The position numbers were made by a program, and so were the translations under genes. This document shows positions 5,627-32,990 of a DNA stretch of 64,000 bases, in pieces (the stretch's first letter is position 1; each line of letters starts with the position of its first letter). The stretch covers positions 55,631,199-55,695,198 of the forward strand of contig CM065684.1 of NCBI GenBank assembly GCA_017654935.2. The letters are read 5' to 3'. Below the pieces are notes generated by a model. That model was not told where the DNA came from and ran no database searches. It saw nothing but the letters and a program-made list of their open reading frames with translations. This stretch comes from Phymorhynchus buccinoides (taxonomy: Eukaryota > Mollusca > Gastropoda > Neogastropoda > Raphitomidae).

Positions 5627-6783
5627 AGTTTCTGGCCAATCTTGCAGACCCTGGCAGCATGTGCGTGGGCTACCTCGGTCAGCCTTGCCAATGTACCAAT
5701 GTAAATCTATTCTATATCAGCCCACTGCTGCTTATTTCCCATAGGAGTTTTGGGCCAAGTTCCCACACCTAGCCAGCACATTTTCAAACTCGGACCCTTA
5801 CACGAAAGCAGCCTACAGGGCCCAATCACATGTAGACATACAGCTCCGGCACGACTTCCCTGTTACATCAACCCTTCGTTGTGTGTTTCCCACATAACTT
5901 TTGGGCCAAGTTCTCACACCTAGCCAGCACATTTTCAAACTCGGACCCTTACACGAAAGCGGCCTACAGGGCCCAATCACATGTAGACATACAGCTCCGG
6001 CACGACTTCCCTGTTACATCAACCCTTCGTTGTGTGTTTCCCACATAACTTTTGGGCCAAGTTCTCACACCTAGCCAGCGCATTCTCGTACTCAGACCCT
6101 GAGAGTAACACGAAGTACAGGGCCCATGCAGACATACAACTCAGGAATGACTTCCCCAACCCTTTGTTGTGTGTTACTCCCAGGAGTTCCTTGCCAAATT
6201 CCCAAGCCCTGGGTGCATGTTCAGCAACACTGACCCTGAGACGAAGGAGTCCTGTAGGGTCCATGTAGACGTACAACTCGGGCACGACTTCCATGTTATA
6301 TATCAACCCTTTGTTGTCTGTTTCTCCCAGGAGTTCCTTGTCAAATTCCCAAACCCTGGCAGCATGTTCAGCAACACTGACCCTGAGACGAAGGAGGCCT
6401 GTAGGGTCCATGTAGACATACTGGTACAACTCGAGCACAACTATCCATGTTATATATCAACCCTTTGTTGTGCGTTTCTCCCAGGAGTTCCTGGCCAAAT
6501 TCCCAGACCCTGGCAGCATGTTCAGCAACACTGACCCTGAGACGAAGGAGGCCTGTAGGGTCCATGTAGACATACTGGTACAACTCGAGCACAACTATCC
6601 ATGTTATATATCAACCCTTTGTTGTGCGTTTCTCCCAGGAGTTCCTGGCCAAATTCCCAGACCCTGGCAGCACTTTCTCCAACACTTGACTCAAACAGCA
6701 AGGAGGCGTACAGGGCCCAATCAGGGCCCAACTCAGGCGTGACTTCCTTGTTATATGAACCCTTTGTTGTGCGTTTCTCCCAG
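5627..6783 (+). repeat. Exon-edge tandem array a: acceptor side of exon 3
   Basis: About eight head-to-tail copies of a unit made of pyrimidine tract, AG, and the first 100 or so bases of exon 3 (GAGTT(T/C)CTGGCCAA start). Copies start near 5627, 5745, 5895, 6046, 6184, 6331, 6485 and 6639, with the true exon at 6784. Spacing is 138-154 bp within the main array. Copies near 5895 and 6046 have lost the AG. The four copies nearest the exon keep a good CCCAG acceptor but have no obvious donor. Units are not all multiples of three and the reading frame breaks, so they are unlikely to encode extra protein. Confidence 0.9.
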
Positions 6784-6994
6784 GAGTTTCTGGCCAAATT
6801 CCCAGACCCTGGCAGCGCGTTCACCAACACTGACCCTGAGACGAAGGAGGCGTATAGGGTCCACCTAGACGCACAGCTCAGGCATGACTTCCCCGACTTC
6901 AAGATCAGCTACGTGCGGGAGGTGGTCGACCGGCACCGCCATCACCTGCTGCCCATCGTGAGAGAGCTGGAGGAGACCCGGGCGGACATTCTGG
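6784..6994 (+). CDS. RNF216: RNF216-like E3 ligase, exon 3 of window
   Basis: Follows acceptor 'tttctcccag' and ends at a GTCAGT donor; phase 0 in, phase 1 out. It encodes a segment beginning EFLAKFPDPGSAF and continuing into an amphipathic region rich in R, H, E and L (about codons 460-529 of the visible protein). The equivalent part of RNF216 lies between the ubiquitin-binding region and the RBR. This is the only copy in the array with a usable donor, which is why it is taken as the functional exon. Confidence 0.85.
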
Positions 6995-7343
6995 GTCAGT
7001 GACCATCAAAGATCGTTTCTGTGCGGATTATTAGGGTATCTTTCAGTACAAGTTGTACTACCCCTGAAGGTGGAAGATAAACGAAGAAGAAATAGAAGAA
7101 GACCCCTTGTTCTAGAACCATCTTAGTAGAATTTATTTAATTATTCTGTTATTATTCGATAAAAGGGAAAATGAAATTTAGGAAAACGGGTCTTAGTTGT
7201 GTGCGTCTGTCAAAGTCAAAAACAAAGACAAAATTTTATTTTGTGTGTGTGTGCATGCATGCATGTGTATGTGTATGTTTGTGGGCGTGTGGGCGCATGT
7301 GTTTATGGACATTTGTACACATGCGTGTGCTTATGTGTTACAG

Positions 7344-7469
7344 CTAAAGGCGGCCGATCCAAGAAACTGCGACAAACGCCTAGGGAGGAACCGCTGTCCT
7401 ACCCTGAGCAGCCTGACGAGTATTTCTTCTATGAACTGTGGTACACCTTGAATGAGCAGAGGGTCAAGG
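7344..7469 (+). CDS. RNF216: RNF216-like E3 ligase, exon 4 of window
   Basis: Acceptor 'atgtgttacag' before 7344 and a strong GTAAGA donor at 7470; phase 1 in and out. Encodes 42 residues, basic at first (GGRSKKLRQ) and then aromatic (DEYFFYELWYTL). It links the CUE-like region to the RBR module. No tandem array flanks this exon. Confidence 0.85.
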
Positions 7470-8132
7470 GTAAGAGGAAATGGCGGTGTGGTTGTGAGAA
7501 GAGGAAAGCAGGGGGAGAAATGTGTTTGAGTTTGTGTGTGGCTGATTCTATGCCCTGTTGTTTCCCATGCTTTTGTCCTGAGGAGATGAATCATGTGGAG
7601 AACATTGTTCGTCATGTATTCCTGTATGAATATGTTGAGACGTGTCTATGTGTGTGTGTGTGTATCTATACTGTCTACAAAACAAAGAAATGTATGCTTT
7701 TTCAAAGGTGGTTTCCGTCATTCTCTTGCTGCATGCATATCCTCCAAACTCCTGGAAAGGTTCACCTGCTGGTCCTTGTAATGATCATTATTAAAGTTTC
7801 TCTCTGCACGTGCACATGTGTGCACAGTGCCTAAAATGTCAAAAAAGCGATTTTTTTCTTGCCCACATGCTATGCATGAGTAGAATCTCATAAAATGTTG
7901 TGAATACAGAGTTAAACACAATTCAAAAGTTGTCTATATTTTTGTACAAGGCTTTTAAACTTCGAGATATTATACTGTCATGAGCATTGTTCTGTTACTT
8001 TGTATTTGTGATTGATTTTGTGTACTTCAAATATTGTCACACACCCTTACAAATGGGGCGATGCCTTTTCAGGAATAAAACATTGTCATTGTCTCTCTCT
8101 CTCTCTCCCAACCCTCTCTCTCTTTCATCCAG

Positions 8133-8321
8133 ATCACTTTGAGGCGAAGGCGGCTGTTCGTCAGGCCAGGATCGAGGAGGCTCGCGGGCGTAACGAGCTG
8201 TATGAGTGTCACTGCTGCTTCGAGGACGAACTGCTGTTCGAGGACATGAACACCTGTGCCGACGGCCACCTCTTCTGTCGGCAATGCCTCGCCCGTTCTG
8301 CTGAGGCGGCCTTCGGGGAAA
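8133..8321 (+). CDS. RNF216: RNF216-like E3 ligase, RING1 exon
   Basis: Starts after a pyrimidine-rich acceptor (ctttcatccag) and ends at GTAAGTAG; phase 1 in and out. Encodes the first RING of the RBR. Zinc ligands are visible in ECHCC (codons 597-600), then NTCADGHLFCRQC. The ADxHLFC core is the RNF216-type RING1 signature. The remaining RING1 cysteines are in the next exon. RING1 recruits the ubiquitin-charged E2 in RBR ligases. The 3' half of this exon is the seed of array b. Confidence 0.93.
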
Positions 8322-8905
8322 GTAAGTAGAAAGTGGGGGTTGGGGGGGAAAGAGTGTGTGTGAGTGTGTGTTTGTTTGCCGACGGCCACCTCTTCTGTCG
8401 ACAGTGCCTCGCCCTTTCTGCTGAGGCAGCCTTTGGGGAGGGTAAGTAGAAAGTGGGGGTTGGGGGGGAAAGAGTGTGTGTGAGTGTGTGTTTGTTTGCC
8501 GACGGCCACCTCTTCTGTCGGCAATGCCTCGCCCGTTCTGCTGAGGCGGCCTTTGGGGAGGGTAAGTAGAAAGTGGGGGTTGGGGGGGAAAGAGTGTGTG
8601 TGAGTGTGTGTTTGTTTGCCGACGGCCACCTCTTCTGTCGGCAATGCCTCGCCCGTTCTGCTGAGGCGGCCTTTGGGGAGGGTAAGTAGAAAGTGGGGGT
8701 TGGGGGGGGAAAGAGTGTGTGCGTGTGTGCCTATGGTCACCTCTTCTGTCGACAGTGCCTTTGTGCGCTCTGCAAAGCTGCTTTTGGGAAAGGGGGGGGG
8801 GGGGGGGGGGAGGGGTTGTGTGTGTTTATGTGTGTGTGCCTGAGGCCATCTCTTCTGTTGACAGCGCATAATGTACTTTGCTCATGCTGCATTTGCAGAA
8901 GGTGT
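8322..8905 (+). repeat. Exon-edge tandem array b: donor side of the RING1 exon
   Basis: Three exact-length 120-bp copies (donors at 8442, 8562 and 8682 after the true donor at 8322) carry the last 65 or so bases of the RING1 exon, the GTAAGTAG donor and about 50 bp of G-rich intron. Two decayed copies follow at about 8735-8800 and 8845-8905, separated by a poly-G run. Read-through meets TAG in the donor (GTAAGTAG), so extension of the exon would truncate the protein. Copies have no acceptor of their own. Confidence 0.93.
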
Positions 8906-9509
8906 GTTTGTGTCTGTCTGTCTGTGTATTTTATTGTACTGAATGTATTTAACATGTTCTGAATGTTATGTTATAATGTTTGATGTGTGTATTTTAATGT
9001 TGAATCACAGGCGTAACAACGATGAATTTCTCTTTTGAGATAATAAAGTATTGTTGAGTTGAGTTGAGTGTGTGAGACTATTAATTTTTAAATTTTATTC
9101 TAGCATGTTTATGTAGCAGTAGTGATTAGCAATCAGTTGTAACTGTGTGTGTGTTGGTGGTGTGCGTGCGTGAGATTGTTATCCATTTATGAATGATGCT
9201 CACGCCTGTAACTTGAGTTGATATTGGAACAATTAAAGAGTTGAGAATCTGATCTTGTGTGGGAAAGATCACACAAGATCTGCTGTATTGGTCATGTGAG
9301 TATGTGAATGTATGTATGGAAATCCTGAATTCTACAGTAAGCTATGTTTTGCACTTTAGGTTTGCCGATATTTGATTCTAGAATGTTGCAATACTGTACA
9401 AGTGAAGCCTCCTTTGCTTGTATAACTGGCACACATAAATATATGATTTTCAACATTTCTTGCTGTGTTTTTTTGTGTGTGTGCATATTGTCTGCTCTGT
9501 ACTTTGCAG

Positions 9510-9604
9510 GTAAAACTGTTTTCCCCTGTCTGACGGGCACGTGTGAACACCAGATTCCTCTGTCGGTGTTGAAGGAGGTGCTGCCCTCTTCCATGTTCTC
9601 CAAG
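9510..9604 (+). CDS. RNF216: RNF216-like E3 ligase, end of RING1
   Basis: Acceptor 'tactttgcag' and donor GTAAGG; phase 1 in, phase 0 out. Supplies the last RING1 ligands (FPCLTGTC, codons 641 and 646) and the linker toward the IBR. Joining to 26253 across a 16.6-kb intron gives the spacing expected between RING1 and IBR in RNF216. Confidence 0.9.
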
Positions 9605-11379
9605 GTAAGGGCTTCTGCACACACTACCACAAATTAGTTGCTACAACTGGTGTTATACCACAAGTTGCAGTAAAAATCGCAGAGCTCGCGGCACACGCTG
9701 CAACTTTGATACGACGTCCTTGCAATCATATGCTGAACCGACCACAGGTAGACTCAGAAAATATTGTTATAAAATGCATGCAGACTACTCATATGTAAAC
9801 TAAAATGCCAAAGCTGACAAAGACCTACTGATCTAAGCGACCAAAACGTGTTGAAAGACTCCTAAATTGTAACTAGATTCCTTCGTTCACATTGGTTTTT
9901 GAAAATTCTGCACCGTCTTTTTATAATTCAGCCAGAAACGGGTTTAGCTCACCTGTACAGGCTAATTAGCGCCATTGTTGTTTACATGGCAACGTACTAC
10001 GGCGCCGCCATGTTTACTCAGGGTGCGGACATGTTTAGTCCTTTACCACAATAGACGGGCGCCATGTTAGCTACAGGGCGCAGCCATTGTGAACGACATG
10101 TACTTTCAATGCACAACTAAGAATTCTATGAAAGAACTTCATTTGCGAAGCGAACGGCTTTCTTTGCATTAACGTAGAGAAATTCAGTCCTGTTCTTCAA
10201 TAATTCCAAGATATTCTACGTCTCCAATACTTAGAAACTATGATACGGATCACCGGAAAGGTGAATCGAACAGACGACATTTTGCTGTGTGCCAGACACT
10301 GATACTGATACTGTGATAGGCCTTGAGCTTGCACGACTGTGTTGACAGTGCCACAAAGTATCTACACTAGGCCTACCTAGTGTCAATAGATTCTACTCTC
10401 AAAACGGATGAAAATATGAGTGTGTGCTATTTGGATGCACAGATCTGGATGATGTGATTCCACAGAAAGGAAAGATTATAGAGTCTAGACATAATCGCTA
10501 AATCTTCTACCTTGAAGATAATCTTCCTGTAGATCTAGATATTTGACACACGTAGACTGGTGGGCTGTTTGACAAACTTCTAGCCTGTTTAGCGGAAAGT
10601 AATGACGTGAAACCGACAAGAATTACGGAAAAGAGATGTGCCAAACGTTCACCGATCAGCTTGTGTGCAGTACCAGCAACAACATAATTCTTTTCGTCAG
10701 TCACAATGGCCAAAACATTGATGTTTCCCTAGATCTACATCAAAATGATCAACGCACCTGTCGATGGTCAACATTACTTAGCCTACAGTGGAAAAACGAA
10801 GTGTAAGTACAATTGTTTGATTGATTGAGCAGTGTCTCAATCAATTGGGGCCTGGGCACTACCTGGGGTGTCTAGGGTCGGCTAGTTTCCAGCTTGCTGG
10901 GGGCGAACGTGAAAATTAGTAGCTGACGGCAGCTTCCTGTAGTTTTCCCCTCCCCAGCCCGGAACTAGTTTTTTAAATTTTGTTTGCTACTCCTGTTTTT
11001 ACCTTATATATTGAAGCTGAACCCAAGTAAATAATAATTAATAGGGTGACGTGCATAGCCTTTTCTTGGAAAACTGATAGGCCTAATGTAATGTGTGTAC
11101 CCTTTTCTCTCTTTCCCTCTTCCGCCTCTTTTTCTATGGTCACCCCCTAAAGTGTGTACAGTTACTTCCAGATAAAGAGGTTGTTCACCACCACAGAAGA
11201 AGAAGAAGAAGAGGGAGAAATCTACTGTACGTTACATGTACTTTATTTTAACCAGAGCCAATTAACCTTTAGTAGCTTACTGCACGTTTTTTTTAAAAAT
11301 TTGGTAACATTATACTCTAAGTCATATTGGTGTTAGATCTAGTATGTTTGGTTATTTGCTCTTCTTCAACCACTTAGAC
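9605..11379 (+). other. Long intron, left part: no supported gene
   Basis: Unique-looking sequence with several ATGs in a CpG-containing patch at about 9980-10110. No ORF longer than about 25 codons follows them. This could be a promoter or first-exon region for the unidentified terminal exon at 14201, but no continuous exon chain could be built. Confidence 0.3.
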
Positions 11380-11700
11380 AGTCTTCTATCATAAATGCAG
11401 ATGCGCCATGCTGCCGTTATGCGCCTTATAAATAATTAGGATCAGCATGTCCGTTTTCAAATGCAGAAAAACTTTGTAAAAATGTCTAGAACAAAAACAC
11501 GAGAATGGATCAGTGAGGCAGAGAGATTGTAGATGACAGTAAGCAAAGGGAAAAGGCAGTCAAATGGAGTGATAGAATAGAGGAAGTAGGAGGCACAGAA
11601 CTTCCAGAAGGCACTATATGTGCAAAGACAACCTACCTCCCAATATCCCACAGGGGAATGGTTATCTATGAATTTGGTCTCCCCTATAATTTTTGTTTTC
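11380..11700 (+). repeat. Dispersed repeat family R1, copy 1
   Basis: Shares ordered blocks with regions at 13810-14130, 27780-28090, 36590-36750 and 45020-45275. The blocks are 'cagatgcgycatgct', 'aaaggcaggagaatggaccagtgag', 'agtaagcaaagggaaaaggca', 'tagaggaagtt', 'acagaacttccagaagg' and a final 'tatcccacagggg'. The family is about 300-400 bp, with copies truncated at either end. No RNA polymerase III boxes or terminal inverted repeats were recognised, so its class is open (SINE or non-autonomous DNA element). Confidence 0.6.
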
Positions 11701-12048
11701 TTCTGATCAAACAAGGGCAGTCCATGGCATCCATACAGGACAGACAGGAGTCTCCTACATACAGGTAAAATTCAGTATATAAACCAGTGATGTACCGAGG
11801 ATAGAAAAGTGACAGGACAAACTGTCCTGAGATTAGAGAAATCAACAGGACAATGTCCCAGCTCTTGCCGAAATCAATAAGACAAAGCGTGCCAGTATTG
11901 GCAAATTAAATTAATTAGACATTTGTCCTGACAGGGGAGAACACAATAAATAACATTTTCAATTTTAATAGGTCAGTGGCCTATGACCTGGATCTCGGGA
12001 CATCACTGTTAATAAGCATCCCGATTCATATACAGTATAATGCATGCA

Positions 12049-12170
<122 letters not shown>

Positions 12171-12852
12171 CACACAGTGACGCAGCGAGAGTCAATTCAT
12201 TTTACTTCTTTTTTTTCTGATTGATAAACATGCGTCTTTTGTGTTTCCATTCTTATACAAATGTATACACCAAAACATCATAGTACAGTATAGTATAGTG
12301 TGAGACTGGCTCAAGTCTAAGCCTTGCGGCTTATAAACTTCCCTTCATTGATCACTGTTTTGTTTGCTTGAAGCATGCCTTTAAAATTATGATTGTATTT
12401 TAATCATCATATTAAAAAAATAGTTTGCTAAAGTTTTCATCCTTGTCAGTGGGATTTTCATGGATTGACAAAGAGGACTAGGCCCCTCAAAATGATCATC
12501 TCACTTTGTGTAATTGGTGTGGGTATTTTTTGTGGTCAAAATATGTTTTTCCTTGGAAAATGTTGCAAGTTTTCTTTGTAAAGCGAAAATCAAGTGTTAG
12601 TGTAAAATAAAACTAGCAAAACAGTGTCCAAAGTCCATGTTTTATTTAGAACTTTGTATATAAAACTTATCTGAATCTCTGGCTCTCAATGTTTTTAAAT
12701 GTCCAAGTCACAGTTGAGCTATGTGTAGTTTGATTATGTTGCATTTGTTATAGCTTATGTTCACAAAATTGTAAAATACTATTACTTATGTTTTTGCTTC
12801 TAGTGACCTACAGGTATTTTAACAGTTAATATTTGAATATCTTATATTACAG

Positions 12853-12918
12853 GTGCAGTCCATATCACAAGCTGTGCAGGATGGACAGGGGTCTCCAACA
12901 GATACCGACCACATGCGG
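12853..12918 (+). CDS. Possible 66-bp exon of an unidentified plus-strand gene
   Basis: A 66-base segment bounded by acceptor 'cttatattacag' and donor GTAAAA. It is open in the frame reading VQSISQAVQDGQGSP. A diverged relative (about 11716-11764, with QSMASIQDRQESP and a donor GTAAAA) lies 1.1 kb upstream, suggesting an exon duplication. Its phase is the same in and out, so its connection to 14201 or to RNF216 is not determined. It could also be part of a repeat. Confidence 0.3.
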
Positions 12919-13809
12919 GTAAAAATCAGTAGTTACTTGTATGTATGCACTTGTGTTTGTATTGTATGCTAGTCTGTCGTTTCCGACTATGACTACCAGA
13001 TAGGAGAGGGGTCAGATGTTATTCTGGCGGGCTAGGCTAGAATTTGTTTGTAGTGGAGATGCCTTGCCCAGGGCACTTATGTACTTGCATGCTTACACAA
13101 CACACACACGCACGCAAGCGCACGCACGCGCACGCACGCGCACGCACACACACACACACACTGCAGACTTGTGTAAGTTTCTGTGAATTAATAAATTAAT
13201 CTTTAATAATTCAAACTAAGATGTGAGAAAGGATTTGAATAGTGAAATAGTAAGGCTAAACGAGAATATATAGAACTAGAAAAGGGAAGGGGACTCGTGT
13301 GTTGTATGTGTGCAACATATCCGTGATTAGAAAGCTACGCCATTCTTGAATTAATATTGTTTTGTTTGTACACAGTTCTCTCTACCATAGTTTGCCATGT
13401 TCTGTATGTATGATTACATGGGCGAGCGTGCCTCCTCCTTTTTGAGAAAGTGAGTGGATTTGTTCCTCTGTAATCTTAATTCATACAGGGTTAGTATGGC
13501 TGGTGGAGTGGCATAGGCAACTTTGGTGGGGGAGTTGTATCCCTTTAATGGATAGTTCCCTACCCATGCTAATTTTCACAAGATGTGTGAAGTAAATATA
13601 AATGATGTTCAGGAAGTAACAAGGCACATAAAACATTCTATTTTATTATTTCATGTAGGCCTATTTATTTTGAAGGACAGATATGTGATGTTATTTGCTT
13701 TCCTCATTGTACAAATAACACCAAGTATTTACATGCTTCACTGTTTGTATTCACAGGTATTTCTTGCAAGGGTTCCATGGTCAACTTTTGTTTATTCGTC
13801 TTCTTCTGC

Positions 13810-14130
13810 GTTCCCAGGCCAAAAGGCCATAATGGACCAAAGTACGTATGTGTCCGGTTTTCAGTTTTCAGTTTTCATTGGTCTCCTCGCTGAGTACAGC
13901 TGACACATTCCGATTCCGGAAGAGCTAAATGGAGAAAAGTTATTTGAATTTTTGTTTAAAGGCAGGGGAATGGGCCAATAGGTCAGATAATAGCCGACAG
14001 TAAGCAAAGGGAAAAGGCAGAGTCAAAGAGAGTGACAGATTAGAGGAAGTTACAAGCACAGAACTTCCAGAAGGTTGGGGGACTATACAAAAGACCCCCC
14101 GGTATCCAAATGGGGGAACTTTTGTTTATA
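13810..14130 (+). repeat. Dispersed repeat family R1, copy 2
   Basis: Begins 'cccaggccaaaaggccataatgg' and continues through 'tctcctcgctga', 'aagcaaagggaaaaggca', 'tagaggaagtt' and 'cagaacttccagaagg', ending in 'tatccaaatggggg'. It shows the same block order as the copies at 11.4, 27.8, 36.6 and 45.0 kb. Confidence 0.6.
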
Positions 14131-14200
14131 AAATAATTTTTAAAAAGCAATATCGTTAAAAGTGAAATTCTTTACCATGCAATTGTTAATATATTTGCAG

Positions 14201-14382
14201 ACTATGTTACAAGTTTGATGGAGGTGGTGGGCCAGCTGGCCTCCACTCACAAACTGGCGGAGATGCTGGAGAGACAGAGAGAGGAGCCAGCCCCACCTAG
14301 CCCCCTCTCCAGAGACTACCAACCAGTACAGGTTGGAGGACATGATTGGGACTCGAGAACACTTGAACTGAATCTGCAGTGA
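14201..14382 (+). CDS. Unidentified terminal exon nested in the RNF216 intron
   Basis: Acceptor 'atatttgcag' is followed by a 60-codon open frame (phase 1 entry) ending in TGA at 14380-14382. The peptide has an amphipathic start (SLMEVVGQLASTHKLAEMLE), a Pro-rich middle (EEPAPPSPLS) and ends LELNLQ. ATTAAA-type signals follow at about 14425-14440. Codon composition is GC-richer than the surrounding intron, as in the true exons. Direct splicing from the RNF216 exon ending at 9604 would be out of frame, so it probably belongs to a separate nested gene or an alternative isoform with further exons. The family is not recognised. Confidence 0.45.
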
Positions 14383-15065: not shown

Positions 15066-15096
<31 letters not shown>

Positions 15097-16502: not shown

Positions 16503-16635
16503 TCTATCAATCAAATCATTTATTGTCCTTTTAAAAACTGCATAAAAGGAAATGCTGCTGCTGTCCCCAGACAAACAAACAACAGACAACAAGTACAGTA
16601 AGAAGATGATCATGACACAAAACATTATCATCATC

Positions 16636-17475
16636 ATATAGTAAAAAGCCAAGTGTCCGTGTGTGTGTGTGTGTGTGTGTGTGTCTGTCTGAAACACGAA
16701 ACGGGCCTTATAACTCCGCCGTTTTTCGACCGAATCGCTTCAAATTTGCTGTGAGCCCTGACGGGGCGATGGCAACGGCAAACGAGGCGGCCGTGTCATT
16801 TGCGCGGTTCGGCAAATGCGCGAAACGCGCATCCGCCAGCCTCTCGGCGCCCGTATCTCCGGTGTTTCTGGACCGATTGCCTTTGAATTTGGCAGGAAGA
16901 TCACCGGGGATGGTGCCTATCCGTGTACCAACCCGGAAGCGAATCGGTTCAGAAACGCGCGCGCTATACGACTCCGCCGTTTCTTAACCGAATCGCTTCA
17001 AATTTGCTGTACTCGGCGTTACCAGTACTTGGCGTTACCGTTACTGCGTTACTGGGACTCGGCGTTGCGCTAGTCATATAGTAATAAGCCAAGTGTCCGT
17101 GTGTGTGTGTGTGTCTGAAACACGAAACGGGCTTTATAACTCCGCCGTTTTTCCACCAAATCGCTTCAAATTAGCTGTGAGCCCTCACGGGGCGATGGCA
17201 ACGGCAACCGAGGCGGCCGTATCATTTGCGCGGTTTCGCAAATGCGCGAAACGCGCATCCGCCGGCCTCTCGGCGCCCATATCTCCGGCGTTTCTGGGCC
17301 GATTGCCTTCGAATTTGGCAGGAAGATGACCGGGGCCGGGGACTATCCGTGTGCCAAACCGGAAGCGAATCGATTCGTAAACGCGCGCGCTAGACGCCGC
17401 CGTTTCTTAACCGAATCGCTTCAAATTTGCTCTCAGGCTTGCTATGGCCAGGGCAAAGCCTGGCAGGAAATTTGA
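16636..17475 (+). repeat. Direct duplication of a ~430-bp GC-rich repeat
   Basis: Two head-to-tail copies start with 'catatagtaa.aagccaagtg' at 16636 and 17074. Each is followed by a TG tract, then 'tctgaaacacgaaacggg', 'aactccgccgtttttc' and a GC-rich body, ending in 'accgaatcgcttcaaattt'. Short conserved prefix sequences of this type recur in invertebrate non-autonomous elements, but terminal structures that would class it were not found. Confidence 0.7.
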
Positions 17476-17579: not shown

Positions 17580-17630
<51 letters not shown>

Positions 17631-17845
17631 CGCGCGTGCGTGCACATACACACACACATCTTGGGTACATAAATGACTGTTCGAAGAAAAATAGTATCAA
17701 TGCCAATAATATTACAGTAAATAAGGAGATAAAAGTAAAGTCCATAGTACTATAAGATCAAATAAATGAATAAATACCATCACAGTAAACAAAGCAACAT
17801 GAATAAAAAGCAGTAATAAAAGTGTATAAAGAAGATATCACACTA

Positions 17846-18016
17846 CAGTGGAACCTCCATTATAAGACCTCCCATTATAAGACTCCCTCCCACATAAGAC
17901 CTACTTCTCTGAGACGTTGCCCTTCTTTGTGTTAAAAATTACCTCCCTTATAAGACCCTCCCTTAAAGACCTCATATTGGATTATTTTTGGCGGTCTGAT
18001 AAGAGAGGTTCCACTG
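17846..18016. mobile_element. MITE with CAGTGGAACCTC termini (pogo/Tc1-like), copy 1
   Basis: A near-palindromic element flanked by TA on both sides. The ends read CAGTGGAACCTCC and GAGGTTCCACTG, and the internal half-repeats 'ttataagac' face each other. Relatives lie at 23561-23732 and 60603-60760. TA target sites and this type of terminus fit the Tc1/mariner-pogo superfamily. No transposase is encoded. Confidence 0.8.
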
Positions 18017-18093
18017 TATTAAACATAAAACAATGCTGACAACATGAGTAAAATGAATAAGTGTACATATATAACATTTAAGCAAACACAGAA

Positions 18094-18140
<47 letters not shown>

Positions 18141-18361
18141 TAGATTAAAGTACAAAAACGTTTGACTAAAAAGTAACGACCAATACCAATAACATTACAG
18201 TAAAAATAAGGAAAACCAATATTAAAGTGTATAAAGATATCACATGCATAATTCATAGAAACAAAAAGTGTCTACAGAATCCACAAAATGGCAGGAATAA
18301 ATTTACTTTTCATTGAGTTATTGCCAAATGAAAATGGGTACATCCTGTACATGATCCATCC

Positions 18362-23545: not shown

Positions 23546-23560
23546 AATAATATTACTACA

Positions 23561-23732
23561 ATGGAACCTCACTTATAAGACCTTCAAAAATCATCCAAAA
23601 TGAGGTCTTGAAAGGGAGGGGTCTTATAAGGGAAGTAACATTAATACTTACAAAGAAGGGACATTTATGTCTCAGAGAAGTAGGTCATACATGGGAGGGA
23701 GTCTTATAAGGGAGATCTCACGGTAATTCCTT
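23561..23732. mobile_element. MITE with CAGTGGAACCTC-type termini, copy 2
   Basis: Starts 'caatggaacctcacttataag' (split by one mismatch from the family terminus) and carries the inverted interior block 'gtcttataagggag' toward its right end. The right terminus is more decayed than in the copies at 17.8 and 60.6 kb. Confidence 0.65.
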
Positions 23733-24249: not shown

Positions 24250-24345
24250 CGAATGTGAAATACGGGCCCGTACCCTGCCTGGATAATGTGAAATACGGGC
24301 CCGTACCCTGCCTGGAGAATGTGAAATACGGGCTCGTGCCTCTGC
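24250..24345. repeat. 33-bp minisatellite, three copies
   Basis: Three direct copies built on 'atgtgaaatacggg' + 'cccgtaccctgcctgg', the last truncated and slightly changed. It lies within the RNF216 intron. Confidence 0.85.
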
Positions 24346-24734
24346 CAATAATTAAAATTGCCTTTGGCAGTGCATTTCAACAGTAAACACCAGTATAAAA
24401 TAGCTGTCAATGTACAAAGTCAGGATTCACGATTCGGGATGATCAACATCAGCTAAGTCAAAGAATAGATTGTACAGTCATGCTGCTTGCTTATAGATCT
24501 ATACTCAACCTACTCTATCTTCACAAATAACTGATTGCAGCAGTGGTTGATCACGATAAACAGAACAGAATGAACAAGACTAACATTCTTTCATCTGCAG
24601 CTGCTGACATGAAGTATAGACTACCATAAAAATAGATCTAGATCCTGATCTACCACTTTGTAACTGTTAGTATGCACCTAAACACTGGTCTGCAAACAAG
24701 CACATTTGATTACTACGTCGCGAAGGCATCTTAC

Positions 24735-24748
24735 CTGTTCCCGTGCAT
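24735..24748 (-). CDS. P2X7-C-terminal-like domain protein, start exon (coding part)
   Basis: Minus strand: ATG at 24746-24748, four codons (MHGN) and a GTAAGA donor after 24735, ending in phase 2. Joining to 21253 gives an uninterrupted MHGNRRPCGNC start. Its short length makes it the weakest part of the model. The region to the right (24750-25000) would be its 5' UTR and promoter side; no TATA box was recognised. Confidence 0.4.
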
Positions 24749-26131
24749 CTGACTGGCTTGGCGTTGGCTGGTTCTACTTGATCTGCACAGCACATTCAAG
24801 TAGGCTCAAACTGGATCTGGATCTTTCATGTCCGACTCGGAAGGGTAGCCATACCAAAGACTGTACAGTATGTTTGGCCATACTCGGTACTGGTACTCGC
24901 TGCTATCGCAGGGAAAACGCAACTCGGCCTAGAATCACCATCACTCGTTCTCCTCCTCCTTCTTAATCAAACGTACTGACGTCGGAAGGGACGTTACTGC
25001 TATCCTTAATGTTCGTTAGGCCTACCAACTTCGTATTTAACCAACCTTGGTCTCATTGAATCGACACTGTTGCTTCCATCTCGCTTTGTCTCGGTTGTTA
25101 CGAGGATTTACAAGTCTCATAACTCAAATGATAAAGTCTGCATTCATCAAAATGATCTCCCATGCACAGCCTCGTTTGTATACGAGGACAATTAATACGT
25201 AAATGATATTAATTAACCTCGTATAGAAACGAGGCAAATCTGTGTGGAAAAAATCCAGGTGAGAATGAGCACCTTTAGCGCCCAATTCCTGGGTAACCTG
25301 AGCATAATGCGTAGCGCGCTTCCTGCAAAACGACTTCTGTCTGTCATTTCTTGGCGTTTCTAGAGAGAAAATTGAGCGGATCAGGGGGTCTTTAAGGACA
25401 ATCTATCTACCCCTTGGTCTTACCAGACCATGTGTCAATGTTTGTATTGTATGTCTCAATAATACTGGGTCATCAACAGGTGACTGTTTGGTAACATTCA
25501 TATATCTGCTCGCCTTGGCATGATATTTCTGTGTCAGACCAATTGACATAAGCTAGAACACCAAGGCTACATTTTCCATTCATAAACACACAGAGATCAA
25601 GAACTAGAGTACCAAGGGGGCTGCGTACCCCTCAAAATAATGCAAGCATGACGTGACTTCTCTACGATTTCAAGAGGGGGTACGCGCGTACCCAATAATG
25701 CGCAGACCTGTTAGTACGCGAGTACAAACGAATGAGAAATATAGATGGTTTTTTAAATTATTTTATTCAGACTTAATTTCATAAAACGTTTGATTAAGCA
25801 TGTGGCTCAGGCATGCTCCAGAGTAGCATTTGGTACAGTTGCGGGTGGGGGTAGGGGGATAGGACAGGGTTTGAAAAAAACAACGAAAAATATGCTACTT
25901 TTTTTTTTTATTTTTTTTTTTATTTTTTTGAACCCTCCACTGTCCCCGCCTTTCTTTTTATTTTATTTTCTTCTTTCGGGGAAAAAATAAAAAAAATATG
26001 CTATTGTTGAATCCTGTGTGAAAGTGAACTGAAACTTTTGAGATAGATTGTCCATTTCGTGAATTGGGCAAACTACTATTTTGCCCATTTCATGGAATGA
26101 GCAATTTCACGGGTTAGGCATAACATATGTG
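24749..26131 (+). other. Long intron, right part: no gene seen
   Basis: Holds poly-T/poly-A rich sequence near 25890-25995, a lone TTAAAGACCCCC-type MITE end at 25383-25394, and a 'gcgtacccct' block (25622) that recurs at 63350. Nothing exon-like was found on either strand. Confidence 0.4.
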
Positions 26132-26252
26132 AACCAGCACCACGAAATTTTCCCAGAATGGTCAGTTTGACCACTTAATGTCCCTTTCACATGCTGGGTG
26201 ACATATGTGCAGTGAAAATGACCACCGCCTGTTTTGTCTGTGCTGTGTGCAG

Positions 26253-26404
26253 GTGCTGCGCAAGATGCAGGAGGAGGAGGTGCGGCAGGCAGGGATCCCT
26301 GACCTGGTGGAGTGCCCCTTCTGCTCCTTCGCCACCATCATGGCCGACCCCGACGATAAGGTCTTCCGCTGCCTGAACCCAGAGTGCCTCAAGGACTCCT
26401 GCAG
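26253..26404 (+). CDS. RNF216: RNF216-like E3 ligase, IBR exon
   Basis: Acceptor 'tgctgtgtgcag', donor GTGGGT, phase 0 in and phase 2 out. Encodes the helical linker VLRKMQEEEVRQAG and the first IBR ligands: ECPFC (C687, C690), FRCLNPEC (C706, C711) and DSC (C716). The last IBR ligands, C719 and C729, come from the next exon. The IBR (BRcat) positions the Rcat relative to RING1. The 3' half of this exon is the seed of array c. Confidence 0.93.
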
Positions 26405-27450
26405 GTGGGTATTCCTCGATCCCTCGTCAGTGTTTGTTATTGTTATCATCATAATTATTATCATCTTCGTCTGTTTTGTCATCACCATCATGGCCAACCC
26501 CAACAACAAGATGTTTCGCTGCCTGAACCCTGAGTGCCTCAAGGACTCCTGCAGGTGGGTATTCCTCGATCCCTCGTCAGTGTTTGTTATTGTTATCATC
26601 ATAATTATCATCATCATCATCATTATCATCATCGTCTGTTTTGTCATCACCATCATGGCAGACCCTGACGATAAGGTCTTCCGCTGCCTGAACCCAGAGT
26701 GCCTCAAGGACTCCTGCAGGTGGGTATTCCTCGATCCCTCGTCAGTGTTTGTTATTGTCATCATCATCATCATCATCATCATTGTCTGTTTTGTCATCAC
26801 CATCATGGCCAACCCCAACAACAAGATGTTCCGCTGCCTGAACCCAGAGTGCCTCAAGGACTCCTGCAGGTGGGTATTCCTCGATCCCTCGTCAGTGTTT
26901 GTTATTGTCATCATCATCATCATCATCATCATTGTCTGTTTTGTCATCACCATCATGGCCAACCCCAACAACAAGATGTTCCGCTGCCTGAACCCAGAGT
27001 GCCTCAAGGACTCCTGCAGGTGGGTATTCCTCGATCCCTCGTCAGTGTTTGTTATTGTTATCATCATAATTATTATCATCTTCGTCTGTTTTGTCATCAT
27101 CATGGCCAACCCCAACAACAAGATGTTCCGCTGCCTGAACCCTGAGTGCCTCAAGGACTCCTGCAGGTGGGTATTCCTCGATCCCTCGTCAGTGTTTGTT
27201 ATTGTTATCATCATAATTATCATCATCATCATCATTATCATCATCGTCTGTTTTGTCATCACCATCATGGCAGACCCTGATGATAAGGTCTTCCGCTGCC
27301 TGAACCCAGAATGCCTCAAGGACTCCTGCAGGTGGGTATTCCTCGATCCTTTGTCAGTGTTTGTTATTATCATCATCATAATCATCATTATCATCATCGT
27401 CTGTTTTGTCATCACCATCATGGCAGACCCTGATGTCAAGGTGTTCCTGA
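26405..27450 (+). repeat. Exon-edge tandem array c: donor side of the IBR exon
   Basis: Six further copies of the last 75 or so bases of the exon, its donor and the following intron, plus a seventh partial copy. Donors are at 26555, 26720, 26870, 27020, 27167 and 27332, so unit lengths are 150, 165, 150, 150, 147 and 165 bp. Every length is a multiple of three, because variation is confined to ATC/TCA triplets in the intronic part. Two unit types exist: those reading NPNNKMF and those reading DPDDKVF; the latter always follow the longer 165-bp spacer. The frame stays open from 26205 to 27494. Copies have donors but no acceptors. Confidence 0.93.
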
Positions 27451-27637
27451 ACACTCCTTCATATTTCTTACTTCCAGCTTTTGTTTGCGGATGAGTTTCC
27501 ATATGGAAGTATTTGAAAATGTGCACATGCCCTGATTGTGTGATAATAGTTTCCTACCATATTATTTGTCATATAAGGCGCAGGAATCTCGGTCGGGGGG
27601 TTATGAAATCTCACCTTATATAGTCCATAAAATTCGC

Positions 27638-28650
27638 TAAATCTTGTGTCATATCCCGTGTCTTTTCCACAGACTTTGCTATGAGCTCAGCCACATGCCC
27701 CTGATTCTTCCTGCAAGAATTCACCACACTGCTTGCTCTGACAATGTCATTCATATAGTGATCTTTCTTCTTCTTATGCGTCCCCAGGCTGTAATGGGTG
27801 AAAGGATGTGTGTCCAGTTTGCAGCTGTCACTGGTCTCCTCGCTGCATTCAGCCAACATGTTTCAGTTTTCGAGAAGTTCAAAGGAGAAAATGATTTGGT
27901 CATGGGTTTTTTTAAGGCAGGAGAATAGTCTTATAAGGCAACTAAAAAAAAGAAGTAGATGACTGTAAGAAAAGGAAAAGGCAGCGTCAAAGAGAGGGAT
28001 AGATTAGAGGAAGTTGCTAGCACAGAAACTTGAGAAGGTTGGGGTACAATTTGTACTGAAAGATCCCCATGGTATCCCCACAGGGGAAATAAAGTGTAAC
28101 AATATTTCATGCCCTGTGTGTTCTTCCCAGACTTTGCCGCGAGCCCAACCACATGCCCCTGAAGAATTCACCAGATAGTCTCTGATATTGTCATTAATGC
28201 AGTGTGCTCTTATTTCATGCCCCGTTATTTTCCCCAGGCTTTGCCGCAAGCCCAACCATGTTCCCCTGAAGGATTCACAAGACTTCTTGTTTTGATATTG
28301 TCATTAATGCAGTGTGCTCTTATTTCATGCCCCGTTATTTTCCCCAGGCTTTGCCGCGAGCCCAACCATGTTCCCCTGAAGGATTCACAAGACTTCTTGT
28401 TTTGATATTGTCATTAATGCAGTGTACTCATATTTCATGCCCCGTTATTTTCCACAGGCTTTGCCGCGAGCCTTGCCACGTTCCCCTGAAGAATTCACAA
28501 GACTTCTTGTTTTGATATTGTCATTAATGCAGTGTCATGATATTTTATGCCCCGTGATTTTCCACTGACTTTGCCGCGAGCCCAACCATGTTCCCCTGAA
28601 GGATTCACAAGACTTCTTGTTTTGATATTGTTATTAACCCTTTCAGCCAA
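27638..28650 (+). repeat. Exon-edge tandem array d: acceptor side of the Rcat exon
   Basis: Copies of pyrimidine tract, AG and the first 37 or so bases of the Rcat exon (CTTTGCCGCGAGCCCAACCA) start at about 27673 (decayed), 28131, 28238, 28348, 28458 and 28568, with exact 110-bp spacing in the last four. The true exon begins at 28907. The copy at 28568 has lost its AG. Between 27780 and 28090 the array is interrupted by a dispersed R1 repeat. No copy has a donor. Confidence 0.92.
27780..28090 (+). repeat. Dispersed repeat family R1, copy 3
   Basis: Begins 'ccccaggctgtaatgg' and carries 'tctcctcgctgc', 'gaaaaggaaaaggcag', 'tagaggaagtt', 'cttgagaaggttgggg' and 'tatccccacagggg' in the family order. 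It is inserted between array d copies at 27673 and 28131. Confidence 0.6.
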
Positions 28651-28906
28651 AAAATACCATTAAACTTAACTGGGTAGAGAAAATAAAATATTTGCAATAT
28701 TGTGAATACATTCCTCTGTGACATGTATAACATTAGGCCTAACCTTACCTCTCAAAATTAACAAAATAGGGTCTTTGAATAACAGGCCCTGTTTTGATGC
28801 CTTTTAGTGATATGGGTGTTAAACCATCGTGGTACTAAAATGCGACATTGGCGGTGAAAGGGTTAATGCTGTGTCATGATATTTCATGCCACGTGATTTT
28901 CCACAG

Positions 28907-29149
28907 ACTTTGCCGCGAGCCCAACCACGTTCCCCTGAAGTGCGACGAGGTGGAGAAGGAGAAGGAGACGGACATGCGCACCTTCATCGAGCAGCGCGTG
29001 ACGGAGGCCATGATCCGGAAGTGCCACCGCTGCGGCAAGGCCTTCGTCAAGGAGGTCGGCTGCAACAAGATGACCTGCGTCTGCGGCGCCAACAGCTGCT
29101 ACGTCTGCAGGACGCCCGACATCGACTACAGACACTTCACCGGGGAGAA
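28907..29149 (+). CDS. RNF216: RNF216-like E3 ligase, Rcat (catalytic) exon
   Basis: Acceptor 'gattttccacag', donor GTAAGA, phase 2 in and out. Completes the IBR (CRLCREPNHVPLKC), then an acidic/basic helix, then Rcat: CHRC (C756, C759), the presumed catalytic Cys769 in EVGCNKMTC, CVCG, SCYVC (C781, C784) and H793 in YRHF. In RBR ligases the Rcat cysteine receives ubiquitin from the E2 before passing it to substrate. The usual distal cysteines after HF in RNF216 are not seen in this exon. Both edges of this exon seed arrays (d and e). Confidence 0.93.
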
Positions 29150-30545
29150 GTAAGACCATTCTGTGTTGTGTTTATGTGTTTTTGTCATGACAATCGTGAG
29201 CTGCAACAAGATGGCCTGCATTTGTGGGGACACCAGTTGCTATGTCTGCAGGACGCCCGACATCGACTACAGACACTTCACCGGGGAGAAGTAAGACCAT
29301 TCTGTGTTGTGTTTATGTGTTTTTGTCATGACAATCGTGAGCTGCAACAAGATGGCCTGCATTTGTGGGGACACCAGTTGCTATGTCTGCAGGACGCCCG
29401 ACATCGACTACAGACACTTCACCGGGGAGAAGTAAGACCATTCTGTGTTGTGTTTATGTGTTTTTGTCATGACAATCGTGAGCTGCAACAAGATGGCCTG
29501 CATTTGTGGGGACACCAGTTGCTATGTCTGCAGGACGCCCGACATCGACTACAGACACTTCACCGGGGAGAAGTAAGACCATTCTGTGTTGTGTTTACCG
29601 TAAAAACTGGACTATAAGACACACCTGTATATAAGCTGCATCCCTTAAATTAACAAAATATTAGGCATTTATTCACATATAAGCCGCACCAGTTTATTAG
29701 CCGCAGAGAAAATTGTATGTGCACAAACCAACACAAATATAGAAATTCTCCTATCAGAACATGAGTATTTAATATTCTCAGACACTTTAAGCATGAGATT
29801 TGAATCTATTGATTACCAAAACCAGTTTGGAGTCTGAAGAAGCTCAAAATAGACTTAAGAATGTGGCCAGAAACAGATTTAATCATAGTGATAAATGTAT
29901 AATAAAAATAAAATCCACAAATAAGCCGCATCAGTCTATAAGCCTCACGGGCCAAAGTTGAGGAAAAGTTGAGGCTTTACAGTATGTATTTTTCTCGTGA
30001 CAATTGTGAGCTGCAACAAGATGGCCTGCATTTGTGGGGACACCAGTTGCTACGTCTGCAGGACGCCCGACATCGACTGCAGACACTTCACCGGGGAGAA
30101 GTAAGACGACCCTGTGTTGTGTTTATGTGTTTTTGTCATGACAATTGTGAGCTGCAACAAGATGGCCTGCATTTGTGGGGACACCAGTTGCTATGTCTGC
30201 AGGACGCCCGACATCGACTGCAGACACTTCACCGGGGAGAAGTAAGACCATTCTGTGTTGTGTTTATGTATTTTTGTCATGACAATCGTGAACTGCAACA
30301 AGATGGCCTGCATTTGTGGGGACACCAGTTGCTATGTCTGCAGGGAACCCGATGTCGACTATACACGCTCTTCACTGTGAAGAAGTATGATGATTCTGTG
30401 TTTATTTCTTATAGTTGTTATTATTTTTCGTGTGGGTTATAACTAGATGACCTGCACCTGTGATACAGCCACCACCAGTTGTCATGTGTTGCAGGGAATC
30501 CGACATCGACTATGCGCACTGCGGAGAACTAAGACGATTCTGTGT
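29150..30545 (+). repeat. Exon-edge tandem array e: donor side of the Rcat exon
   Basis: Copies of the last 90 or so bases of the Rcat exon, donor and about 50 bp of intron, in 141-bp units. Donors are at 29291, 29432, 29573, 30101 and 30242, followed by two decayed copies ending near 30390 and 30535. The first three are almost identical to each other but differ consistently from the true exon (NKMACICGDTS against NKMTCVCGANS), keeping every cysteine including the catalytic one. Later copies read DCRHF. Read-through hits TAA within the donor. A MITE splits the array at 29597-29982. Confidence 0.93.
29597..29982. mobile_element. 'CGGACTATAAG'-type MITE inside array e
   Basis: Inserted in a 141-bp unit. 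Left end 'accgtaaaaactggactata', internal 'ataagccgca' motifs repeated in direct and inverted sense, and right end 'gaggctttacagta'. It is a diverged member of the family seen at 37.3, 37.7, 38.8, 42.8 and 62.6 kb. Confidence 0.65.
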
Positions 30546-31708
30546 CAACAAGTTGCTGGCTGTTTGTTTTTTAAACTGTGGTTCAGGTGTAACGTTGCTT
30601 AGCCCACTTACCCCCAACCCACCCGACGCTAACCTTGCTATGAATCCCATGTCAAGGGAAATAACTTGCGCAATTCACTACAGTGGGTAATTTAAATAAA
30701 ATAATTAAAGATATAATTTCAGTCGGTGAATGCATTGAATTATTTCTGTTATGTTCTTTATACTCTGAAAAGTCACAAAGAAACACTAATTTCAAATTCA
30801 TGGTACTGGTTACTTTATTAAAAAAAAGTTATACTTGATAGCAAAATGTGCCAAAAATAATAAATGAAAAATTAATAAATGTCAAAACTCAATCAAGAAC
30901 GTTCCCAATTTGGAATCAAAGAACTGAATATTCAGTCTACTACAGCTATGTGCCATCATAAAACTGTGCAAAACAATGTCCATTGCAAAGATGGGCTTTG
31001 CAAACTGTGTAGCCTACAACATTTTCTATATGATTTCTTTACTGTAGCCATTCGGTTGACGGCACTTTCGCGATAAGTTATGGTGTCAGATCATCAAGAG
31101 CTTCGAAGTCTGTTGTCTAAGTCACATTCAACCCTTACTCAATCAATTTCTACAAGTTACCTTGCTAAAAAGCCATCGAAATCGCCATAATCGTCTACAA
31201 TATAGTTCAACAGACGCCATAATTCTTTGTCGGACAACAAATGTTTTTTATAGTTGACTTAAAATCATAACTTTGTGAAAACTTGATCAATTTTGACACA
31301 GTAACGGCAATTAGCAATGTATGAAGTGGCAAACATGCAAGTCTCGCGGGTCGAGATTCTCGTTTATGTAAACAGTACAGTCTGTAGCCATAGTCGGCAA
31401 CTGCAAATTGGGCGCTAGCGGGCACTCCGTTGTAACTGACCGCAATTTTTTTAAGAGGCCCTGCGGGCGATCCACTGATTTATGGGTTAGTTAAGTGCGG
31501 CAGTGGTCCTAAATCCAGGGTCAGGTAACAGTTTAGAGTGGCAGACACACACATAATTATGTGTGTCAGCATTGACACTGACAATCTTTTTTCTTTTTTG
31601 TTCTCCCATCTTGTGGGCCATGCAGTGGCATTGCTCCCAGGATGCTCGTTCCAAATCCCAACTCACAGCCACACCCCGGTTTGTCACTGGCAATCTCTGT
31701 TGTTCCAG
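30546..31708 (+). other. Intron: no gene seen
   Basis: AT-rich. Contains no further array copies and no recognised element. A possible alternative acceptor (ccatgcag) at 31619-31626 would start a longer version of the next exon in frame (reading NLCCSSC just before it), but its entry phase does not match the Rcat exon. Confidence 0.4.
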
Positions 31709-31851
31709 CTGCACGGAGGCTGACATGAACAAGCTTCACCAGGAGGAGATGGAGGAGGCAGAGAGGCAGGCCAGGGCAGAGTACCTCAGGCAGCACCCAG
31801 AGGCCCGAGACATGCAGCTCAAGTACGACCCTGCTCAACACCTGGCAGACT
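31709..31851 (+). CDS. RNF216: RNF216-like E3 ligase, post-RBR helical exon
   Basis: Acceptor 'tgttgttccag', donor GTGAGT, phase 2 in and phase 1 out. Encodes a highly charged helix (HQEEMEEAERQARAEYLRQ) followed by LKYDPAQHLAD. An acidic/basic helix directly after Rcat is also present in RNF216. The next exon supplies the codon that completes the junction (Cys-Ala-Arg). Its 3' half seeds array f. Confidence 0.85.
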
Positions 31852-32990
31852 GTGAGTGGAATATTACATTGTTTTTAGTTCTCAGAGAGAGAGTGTGGGT
31901 GTACCTTAGGCAGCACCCCGAGGCCCAAGACATGCAGCTCAAGTACGACCCTGCTCAACTCCTGGCAGACTGTGAGTGGAATATTACATTGTTTTTAGTT
32001 CTCAGAGAGAGAGTGTGGGTGTACCTTAGGCAGCACCCCGAGGCCCAAGACATGCAGCTCAAGTACGACCCTGCTCAACACCTGGCAGACTGTGAGTGGA
32101 ATATTACATTGTTTTTAGTTCTCAGAGAGAGAGTGTGGGTGTACCTTAGGCAGCACCCCGAGGCCCAAGACATGCAGCTCAAGTACGACCCTGCTCAACT
32201 CCTGGCAGACTGTGAGTGGAATATTACATTGTTTTTAGTTCTCAGAGAGAGAGTGTGGGTGTACCTTAGGCAGCACCCCGAGGCCCGAGACATGCAGCTC
32301 AAGTACGACCCTGCTCAACACCTGGCAGACTGTGAGTGGAATATTACATTGTTTTTAGTTCTCAGAGAGTGTGGGTGTACCTTAGGCAGCACCCCGAGGC
32401 CCGAGACATGCAGCTCAAGTATGACCCTGCTCAACTCCTGGCAGACTGAGTGGAATATTACATCATTTCTGTGTTCACAGAGAGAGAGAGAGAATATGTG
32501 TGTGTGCATGTGCGCGCGTGTGTGTGTGTGTGTCTGCCTTAGGCAGCATCCCGAGGCAGCCGACATCCAGCTGAAGTACAACTCTGCTCAACACGTTGCA
32601 GACTGTAAGTAGAATTACACCATTTCCTGTTCTCAAAGAGAGAGAGAGAGACAGACAGAGCGTTTGGGTTTGTATGTGTGTACCTTAGACAGAACCTTTA
32701 GCCAGCCGACATCACACTGAAGTATGACCCTGTGAGTGGAATATTACATTGTTTCCAGTTCTCAGAGAGAGAGAGATAGTGTGTGTATGTGTATCTTAGG
32801 CAGCATCCTGAGGCAGCCGACATCCAGCTGAAGTACGACCCTGTGCAACACCTTCTCAGAGAGAGAGAGATAGTGTGTGTATGTGTATCTTAGGCAGCAT
32901 CCTGAGGCAGCCGACATCCACCTGAAGTACGACCCTGCGCAACACCTTGCAGACTGTGAGTGGAATTGCACCGTTTCCAGTTCTCAGAGA
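31852..32990 (+). repeat. Exon-edge tandem array f: donor side of the post-RBR exon
   Basis: Four exact 120-bp copies (donors 31972, 32092, 32212, 32332) repeat the last 70 or so bases of the exon (YLRQHPEA..DMQLKYDPAQ), the GTGAGTGG donor and about 50 bp of intron ending in GA repeats. Further decayed copies occur near 32447 (donor lost), 32605 (GTAAGT), 32730, 32850 and 32956. H and L codons (CAACACCTG/CAACTCCTG) alternate between successive early copies, showing a two-unit higher-order pattern. The 120-bp unit is a multiple of three, and the frame remains open from the exon to 32612 or so. Confidence 0.93.

What the first reader, a model, noticed from the sequence alone, without database searches (positions are those of the whole stretch)
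5627..32990. Six tandem arrays, each built from one exon edge plus its splice site
Five of the ten RNF216-like exons are bordered by arrays whose unit spans an exon-intron boundary: acceptor side for exons at 6784 and 28907, donor side for exons at 8133, 26253, 28907 and 31709. Units are 110, 120, 120, 141, about 150 and 147-165 bp. In each case the functional exon lies at the end of the array where its other splice site is, so copies have either acceptors or donors but never both. Six independent arrays in one gene, all centred on splice junctions, are hard to explain by random intronic duplication. Possible explanations: splice-site-linked breakage or slippage (R-loops, replication-transcription conflict), selection for decoy splice sites that tune splicing, or a mechanism not described.
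Basis: seen in the sequence. Interest (0 to 1): 0.88.

Follow-up and report, generated by a model that had tools for sequence, protein, structure and literature searches.

The report
Splice-edge minisatellites in a snail gene
In a snail-like RNF216 gene, six tandem arrays each repeat one edge of a predicted exon together with its splice site; they likely arose by repeated local duplication and unequal exchange and are probably ignored by splicing, a pattern named "mirages" in amphioxus that our searches did not find reported in molluscs.

Summary
Ten exons of an RNF216-type gene were modelled; phases agree and the protein is closest to a caenogastropod (Batillaria, 71%). Six arrays, units mostly 110-165 bp, sit at 6 of 18 splice sites (acceptors of exons 3 and 8; donors of 5, 7, 8, 9). 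Tandem Repeats Finder lists no other array with period of 60 or more in the window except composite periods of a 36-bp satellite. Random placement gives six of six about 5e-9 (post hoc). "Functional exon at the far end, never both sites" is geometrically forced. Such arrays are known in amphioxus as "mirages". New here: a likely mollusc, six in one gene, and a trace of how they evolve. In the donor arrays the functional copy and its neighbour differ at 28 of 299 exon but 1 of 215 intron bases, as if exchange continues and selection lets only the intron half through; the two acceptor arrays alone do not show this significantly. Extra copies show no clear coding constraint, decay outward, and two arrays carry transposon-like insertions. 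They are likely unused relics of local duplication. Why splice edges are favoured is not shown; a mutational cause is my preferred inference. No reads, RNA or second snail genome could be examined.

The parts
1..1120 (+). exon 1 of RNF216-like gene (5' end off the window)
   Evidence: GT after 1120, phase fits exon 2
5251..5507 (+). exon 2 (no array)
6784..6994 (+). exon 3 (functional)
5604..6902 (+). acceptor-edge array of exon 3: 8 extra copies upstream of the functional one; 6 of 8 keep AG
7344..7469 (+). exon 4 (no array)
8133..8321 (+). exon 5 (functional)
8257..8900 (+). donor-edge array of exon 5, unit 120 bp (65 exon + 55 intron); 5 extra copies, 4 keep GT
9510..9604 (+). exon 6 (no array)
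26253..26404 (+). exon 7 (functional)
26333..27447 (+). donor-edge array of exon 7, units 147-165 bp; 6 extra copies with a donor, all keep CAG|GTGGGT, plus one truncated copy
28907..29149 (+). exon 8 (functional), arrays on both sides
27649..28940 (+). acceptor-edge array of exon 8, unit 110 bp; 6 extra copies, 5 keep AG
28638..28866 (.). 229-bp TTAA-flanked insertion with similar inverted ends, between the exon 8 acceptor array and the functional copy
   Evidence: sequence printed, compared with a sibling copy
29059..30545 (+). donor-edge array of exon 8, unit 141 bp (91 exon + 50 intron); 7 extra copies, 6 keep GT
29598..29984 (.). TA-flanked insertion inside the exon 8 donor array
   Evidence: sequence printed, compared with a sibling copy
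31709..31851 (+). exon 9 (functional)
31781..33005 (+). donor-edge array of exon 9, unit 120 bp (71 exon + 49 intron); 9 extra copies or part copies, 7 of the 8 with a site region keep GT
39988..40187 (+). exon 10 with stop codon (no array)

Best explanation
These six arrays are boundary-spanning minisatellites of the kind called mirages in amphioxus, here in an RNF216-like gene of a likely caenogastropod snail, and they probably formed when pieces of roughly 110-165 bp spanning a splice junction duplicated in tandem and then grew and were reshuffled by unequal exchange. Shown: the arrays, their register on the modelled splice junctions, outward decay, mixed haplotypes among copies, and near-identity of the intron half between the functional copy and its neighbour while the exon half differs (clear in the donor arrays). 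Inferred: exchange between the terminal functional copy and the array goes on, and purifying selection keeps only exchanges that leave the coding half alone; the extra copies lie within introns and are not used, because the splice site nearest the rest of the exon is paired with that exon's other end (exon definition). Also inferred, and weakest: splice edges are preferred because the first duplications happen there more often (for example by transcription- or nucleosome-linked breakage), not because the copies are useful.
For: Arrays and register. Gene model: in an alignment with six homologues the indels next to array-bearing junctions are of at most 3 residues. Exchange: in the four donor arrays the functional copy and its neighbour differ at 28 of 299 exon and 1 of 215 intron bases (Fisher 2.5e-6), at 16 of 255 and 1 of 209 outside CpG (7e-4); for all six arrays 47 of 431 and 7 of 298 (5.3e-6, counts, test). 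Differences from every one of the 26 close copies (of 42 extra copies) are 27 of 453 exon and 4 of 306 intron sites (0.0012), or 21 of 440 and 4 of 306 without six doubtful exon 7 sites (0.012), while variation among those copies is equal in both halves, 55 of 453 and 34 of 306. Four-gamete pairs occur in 5 of 6 arrays, among the 33 inner copies tested, functional ones included; 44 of 120 pairs in the exon 7 array. In that array 90 of 90 bases from 26380 to 26469 recur 615 bp away in copy 5. Age gradient: identity falls with distance in 6 of 6 arrays, 0 of 2000 shuffles as extreme. No clear coding constraint in the copies: varying sites by codon position 14, 16, 25 (p 0.15). Literature: PMC3087553 section 16 read in full, PMC3902484 passages.
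Against: The asymmetry is not significant in the two acceptor arrays alone (19 of 132 exon against 6 of 83 intron bases, p 0.13), and the exon 8 acceptor array runs the other way (1 of 34 and 4 of 44); an insertion separates it from the functional copy. The exon 5 array has no informative sites for the four-gamete test, which can also be met by recurrent mutation. At two residues the copies, if read in frame, match Batillaria where the functional exon does not (Gly for Ser at the exon 5 end, Thr for Asn in exon 8), so the functional copy has changed too. Third codon positions vary somewhat more often among copies (25 of 55), which leaves room for weak past constraint. Edge preference rests on one gene in one window. 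Splicing, copy number and polymorphism were not observed.
Confidence: 0.72

Rival explanations
1. The extra splice sites are kept by selection as decoys or rheostats that tune splicing of this ubiquitin ligase.
For: 34 of 40 extra copies whose site region is present keep GT or AG (by eye), many identical to the functional site; five of ten exons are affected. All four donor units are multiples of 3, and read-through of one unit stays open in exons 7 and 9.
Against: Kept sites are expected in young copies: exon- and intron-derived parts of close copies vary equally. Six sites are lost, including that of the copy next to the functional exon 8 acceptor. Read-through meets a stop at once in exons 5 and 8. 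The multiple-of-3 pattern is post hoc (1 in 81 by simple arithmetic).
Confidence: 0.08
2. Duplications arise anywhere in introns and six landed on splice edges by chance, noticed because windows were screened for oddities.
For: One gene only; other direct repeats exist in the introns at 16634-17456, 17589-18301 and 37186-39521.
Against: 5.5e-9 for six of six, 4.5e-7 for six of nine, 2.3e-6 for six of eleven; Tandem Repeats Finder does not list those other repeats as arrays with a period of 60 or more. Amphioxus has similar arrays in several genes, though those cases were reported for being at boundaries and are no test of placement.
Confidence: 0.08
3. The placement is a survivorship effect: arrays start anywhere, but those anchored on a selected exon are lost less often, since collapses that fuse a decayed copy onto the functional exon are removed by selection.
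For: In the donor arrays the functional exon half stays distinct while the intron half is near-identical, as expected if selection screens exchange products.
Against: Collapse through the 49-65 bp intron half would still be allowed, so protection is partial; a roughly 20-fold excess seems too large. Not modelled here.
Confidence: 0.08
4. Copies are alternative coding modules spliced into isoforms.
For: The exon's reading frame stays open through the whole exon 7 array (ORF 26202-27494) and the inner part of the exon 9 array (ORF 31557-32612).
Against: No clear coding constraint among copies; the six aligned homologues have no such insertions; read-through stops in exons 5 and 8.
Confidence: 0.03
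5. Assembly artefact.
For: Tandem arrays are prone to misassembly; no reads were available.
Against: Copies differ from one another, decay outward, and two arrays carry unrelated insertions flanked by short direct repeats. Exact copy number may still be wrong.
Confidence: 0.03

Closest known systems
Amphioxus mirages (Adh3, globins BflGb6 and BflGb9: PMC3087553; PGBD5: PMC3902484)
   Same: Minisatellite-like tandem duplication of intron/exon boundaries, at either side of an exon; units of 10 to 160 bp; many but not all copies keep AG or GT; inner copies homogenised, boundary copies left out.
   Different: Here a likely caenogastropod, six arrays in one gene, both sides of one exon; exon/intron asymmetry measured. 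Length differences between haplotypes and regular splicing, reported in amphioxus, were not testable here.
Boundary-crossing duplication in potato RdRp (PMC4974935, abstract and passages)
   Same: A tandem duplication crossing an intron-exon boundary.
   Different: It created a new, used intron; here many copies and no sign of a new intron.
Intron gain by tandem duplication of an AGGT segment (Rogers model; PMC3443670, passages)
   Same: Tandem duplication gives extra splice signals.
   Different: That model duplicates an exonic segment and makes a new intron; here an existing junction is repeated.
Human UBC dual-specific splice site array (PMC10809524, abstract read)
   Same: A tandem array of splice-competent sites in a ubiquitin-pathway gene.
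   Different: UBC repeats whole coding monomers that are spliced in variable number; here copies cover one exon edge and look non-coding.

Membership tests
mirage (boundary-spanning minisatellite) | tandem repeats whose unit spans an exon-intron boundary | tested here: met
   six arrays, on a gene model without RNA support
mirage (boundary-spanning minisatellite) | either the 5' or the 3' boundary of an exon may be affected | tested here: met
   2 acceptor and 4 donor arrays
mirage (boundary-spanning minisatellite) | many but not all copies keep AG/GT | tested here: met
   34 of 40 by eye; two truncated copies of the 42 set aside
mirage (boundary-spanning minisatellite) | concerted evolution inside, boundary copies less homogenised | tested here: met
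   the exon/intron asymmetry is an addition and is not seen in the exon 8 acceptor array
mirage (boundary-spanning minisatellite) | length instability between haplotypes | not testable with these tools
   no reads or second haplotype
mirage (boundary-spanning minisatellite) | regular splicing despite the copies | not testable with these tools
   no RNA data; only the conserved protein model speaks for it
mirage (boundary-spanning minisatellite) | known occurrence in cephalochordates (distribution, not structure) | tested here: not met
   closest protein is from Batillaria, a caenogastropod; treated as range, not as definition
intron gain by AGGT tandem duplication | duplicated segment exonic, new intron between copies | tested here: not met
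   units span existing junctions; the model has no new intron
tandem whole-exon duplication / mutually exclusive exons | copies contain a complete exon with both native splice sites | tested here: not met
   each unit covers one edge of its exon only
RNF216 (RBR ubiquitin ligase) gene | homology to RNF216 over the RING-IBR-RING region | tested here: met
   PDB 7m4m E 1.7e-49; Pfam IBR; Batillaria 71% over 97% of the exon 2-9 protein

The most novel reading that the evidence does not exclude
Splice junctions are hotspots of a widespread animal mutational process that keeps duplicating 100-165 bp around exon edges; snail and lancelet show it independently, and the coding half of the terminal copy is walled off from exchange by selection, so arrays act as fossil records of exons and raw material for new splice sites.
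Probability: 0.3. Interest if true: 0.8.

Novelty: new member of a known kind. Interest (0 to 1): 0.55.

Why it matters
Mirages were reported as possibly a general phenomenon of cephalochordates. Six in one likely molluscan gene would mean either convergent or widespread duplication at splice junctions, and makes the question of a mutational hotspot testable by a simple genome-wide count. The exon/intron asymmetry of the donor arrays would give a direct way to watch selection act on exchange products at a splice site.

Tried and rejected
Amphioxus as the source was considered after finding the mirage papers and rejected: the closest protein is from Batillaria (71%), then Haliotis (58%) (taxonomy). 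Idea that the exon serves as a template that keeps arrays fresh: rejected for the donor arrays, since the exon half is the more divergent half. Mutability as the cause of the asymmetry: leaving out CpG sites weakens it but does not remove it, and variation among copies does not show it. Breakpoint microhomology was looked at by eye and gave nothing consistent. A search of the 120 listed homologues (of 222) for doubled exon pieces gave 4 double matches, one in a rotifer and three in proteins of unnamed source, each with one partner of only 5-13 residues; some pieces matched few homologues (14 for exon 3, 35 for exon 9), so this is a weak test. Papers looked at in passages that were not about boundary-spanning arrays: PMC5896119, PMC4039745, PMC7931591, PMC3862624, PMC10770140.
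Full report
The gene. The window holds a plus-strand RNF216-type gene from its left end to 40187. Ten exons were placed by GT-AG borders and phase; the coding sequence is 2736 bases with its stop, a multiple of 3. The protein of exons 2-9 matches solved RNF216 chains (E 1.7e-49), the Pfam IBR domain and 222 proteins at E 0.001 or better among 7995 scored, 120 of them listed; the best is Batillaria attramentaria at 71% identity over 97%, a caenogastropod. In an alignment with six homologues the indels beside array-bearing junctions are of at most 3 residues (exon 8/9 and 9/10), and none occurs at the exon 2/3, 5/6 and 7/8 junctions, apart from a gap within exon 5 of one homologue. No transcript was available.

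The arrays. Tandem Repeats Finder with periods up to 2000 lists 16 rows with a period of 60 or more; they fall into seven loci: the six described and composite periods of a 36-bp satellite at 41142-41455. A sensitive search with each of ten exons plus 120 bp flanks found copies only at the acceptors of exons 3 and 8 and the donors of exons 5, 7, 8 and 9. A wider search for direct repeats of 50 bp or more within 2000 bp gave 14 clusters, six of them these arrays; the rest include spaced repeats at 16634-17456 and 37186-39521 and a two-copy tandem at 47367-48141.

Chance. With units placed at random in the 40 kb gene and wholly exonic ones excluded, a single-edge hit has probability 0.033-0.051; six of six 5.5e-9, six of nine 4.5e-7, six of eleven 2.3e-6. 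The null ignores that arrays may share a cause and that the window was noticed because it looked odd. That functional exons sit at the far end and copies never have both sites follows from repeating a unit that covers one edge.

How the copies evolve. Identity to the functional copy falls with distance in all six arrays (rho -0.54 to -0.99; 0 of 2000 shuffles as low; identities of the 42 extra copies, several of them partial, one 44-bp row at 32730-32773 with 95% identity left out). Two arrays carry insertions, one flanked by TTAA at 28634-28637 and 28863-28866, one by TA at 29596-29597 and 29983-29984, while sibling copies lack them. In the donor arrays the neighbour of the functional copy differs at 7/65, 8/72, 9/91 and 4/71 exon bases but 0/55, 1/61, 0/50 and 0/49 intron bases (exons 5, 7, 8, 9; for exon 7 the comparison ran from 26333 to 26465). 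Outside CpG the sums are 16/255 and 1/209. In the acceptor arrays the neighbour differs at 18/98 exon and 2/39 intron bases (exon 3), and 1/34 and 4/44 (exon 8), the latter against the pattern; the two acceptor arrays alone give p 0.13, all six 47/431 against 7/298, p 5.3e-6. Differences from all of the 26 close copies (of 42; outer, decayed copies left out) are 27/453 exon and 4/306 intron sites, p 0.0012; six of the exon ones lie at 26324-26332, where homology is doubtful, and without them it is 21/440 against 4/306, p 0.012. Variation among the close copies is 55/453 and 34/306, and its codon positions are 14, 16 and 25, p 0.15. Four-gamete pairs occur in five arrays: 3 of 45, 44 of 120, 4 of 21, 1 of 1, 1 of 1, on 33 inner copies with the functional ones; the exon 5 array has no pair to test. 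I read this as ongoing unequal exchange or conversion that selection screens in the coding half.

Use of the copies. 34 of 40 copies with a site region keep GT or AG (by eye). All four donor units are multiples of 3; read-through of one unit meets a stop in exons 5 and 8 and none in exons 7 and 9. Nothing shows that the copies are used, and no RNA could be examined.

What is known. Amphioxus mirages match in unit length, both boundaries, kept signals and turnover (PMC3087553, section 16 read in full; PMC3902484, passages); Adh3 is cited through that paper, the original not being held. A boundary-crossing duplication made a new intron in potato (PMC4974935, abstract and passages). My ten paper searches listed no paper whose title or shown abstract reports such arrays in molluscs; the three gastropod papers listed were looked at in passages and had none. 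The library holds open-licence papers only. The naming of exon definition, unequal exchange and breakage models is from general knowledge.

Verdict. A real structure of a described kind, a new member of the mirage kind in a likely snail, with a measurable trace of selection on exchange in the donor arrays. The cause of the edge preference stays open.

Noticed in passing
33071-35412: 23-bp satellite of about 102 copies, 97% matches, begins just after the exon 9 array in intron 9.
   Followed up: no
40584-41467: 36-bp satellite of about 25 copies just past the end of the gene.
   Followed up: no
48363-59899 (-): Two similar retroelements one after the other on the minus strand: reverse transcriptase match in an ORF of each, RNase H match in one, long open frames. 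DIRS-like from recall; no call names it.
   Followed up: partly
2760-4277 (-): Reverse transcriptase ORF inside intron 1 (RVT_1 E 1.5e-34).
   Followed up: partly
26333-27424 and 31781-32488: Arrays carry higher-order patterns: a 315-bp period scores higher than 150 in the exon 7 array, and six inner copies of the exon 9 array alternate at one site.
   Followed up: partly
45186-45500 (-) and 60869-61153 (-): Gly-rich open frames resembling RNA-binding protein tails; no Pfam match at E 0.001.
   Followed up: no
29092 and 8321: If read in frame, copies keep residues seen in Batillaria where the functional exon differs (Thr for Asn; Gly for Ser), like fossils of an older exon; at 29073 and 29089 the reverse holds.
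   Followed up: partly
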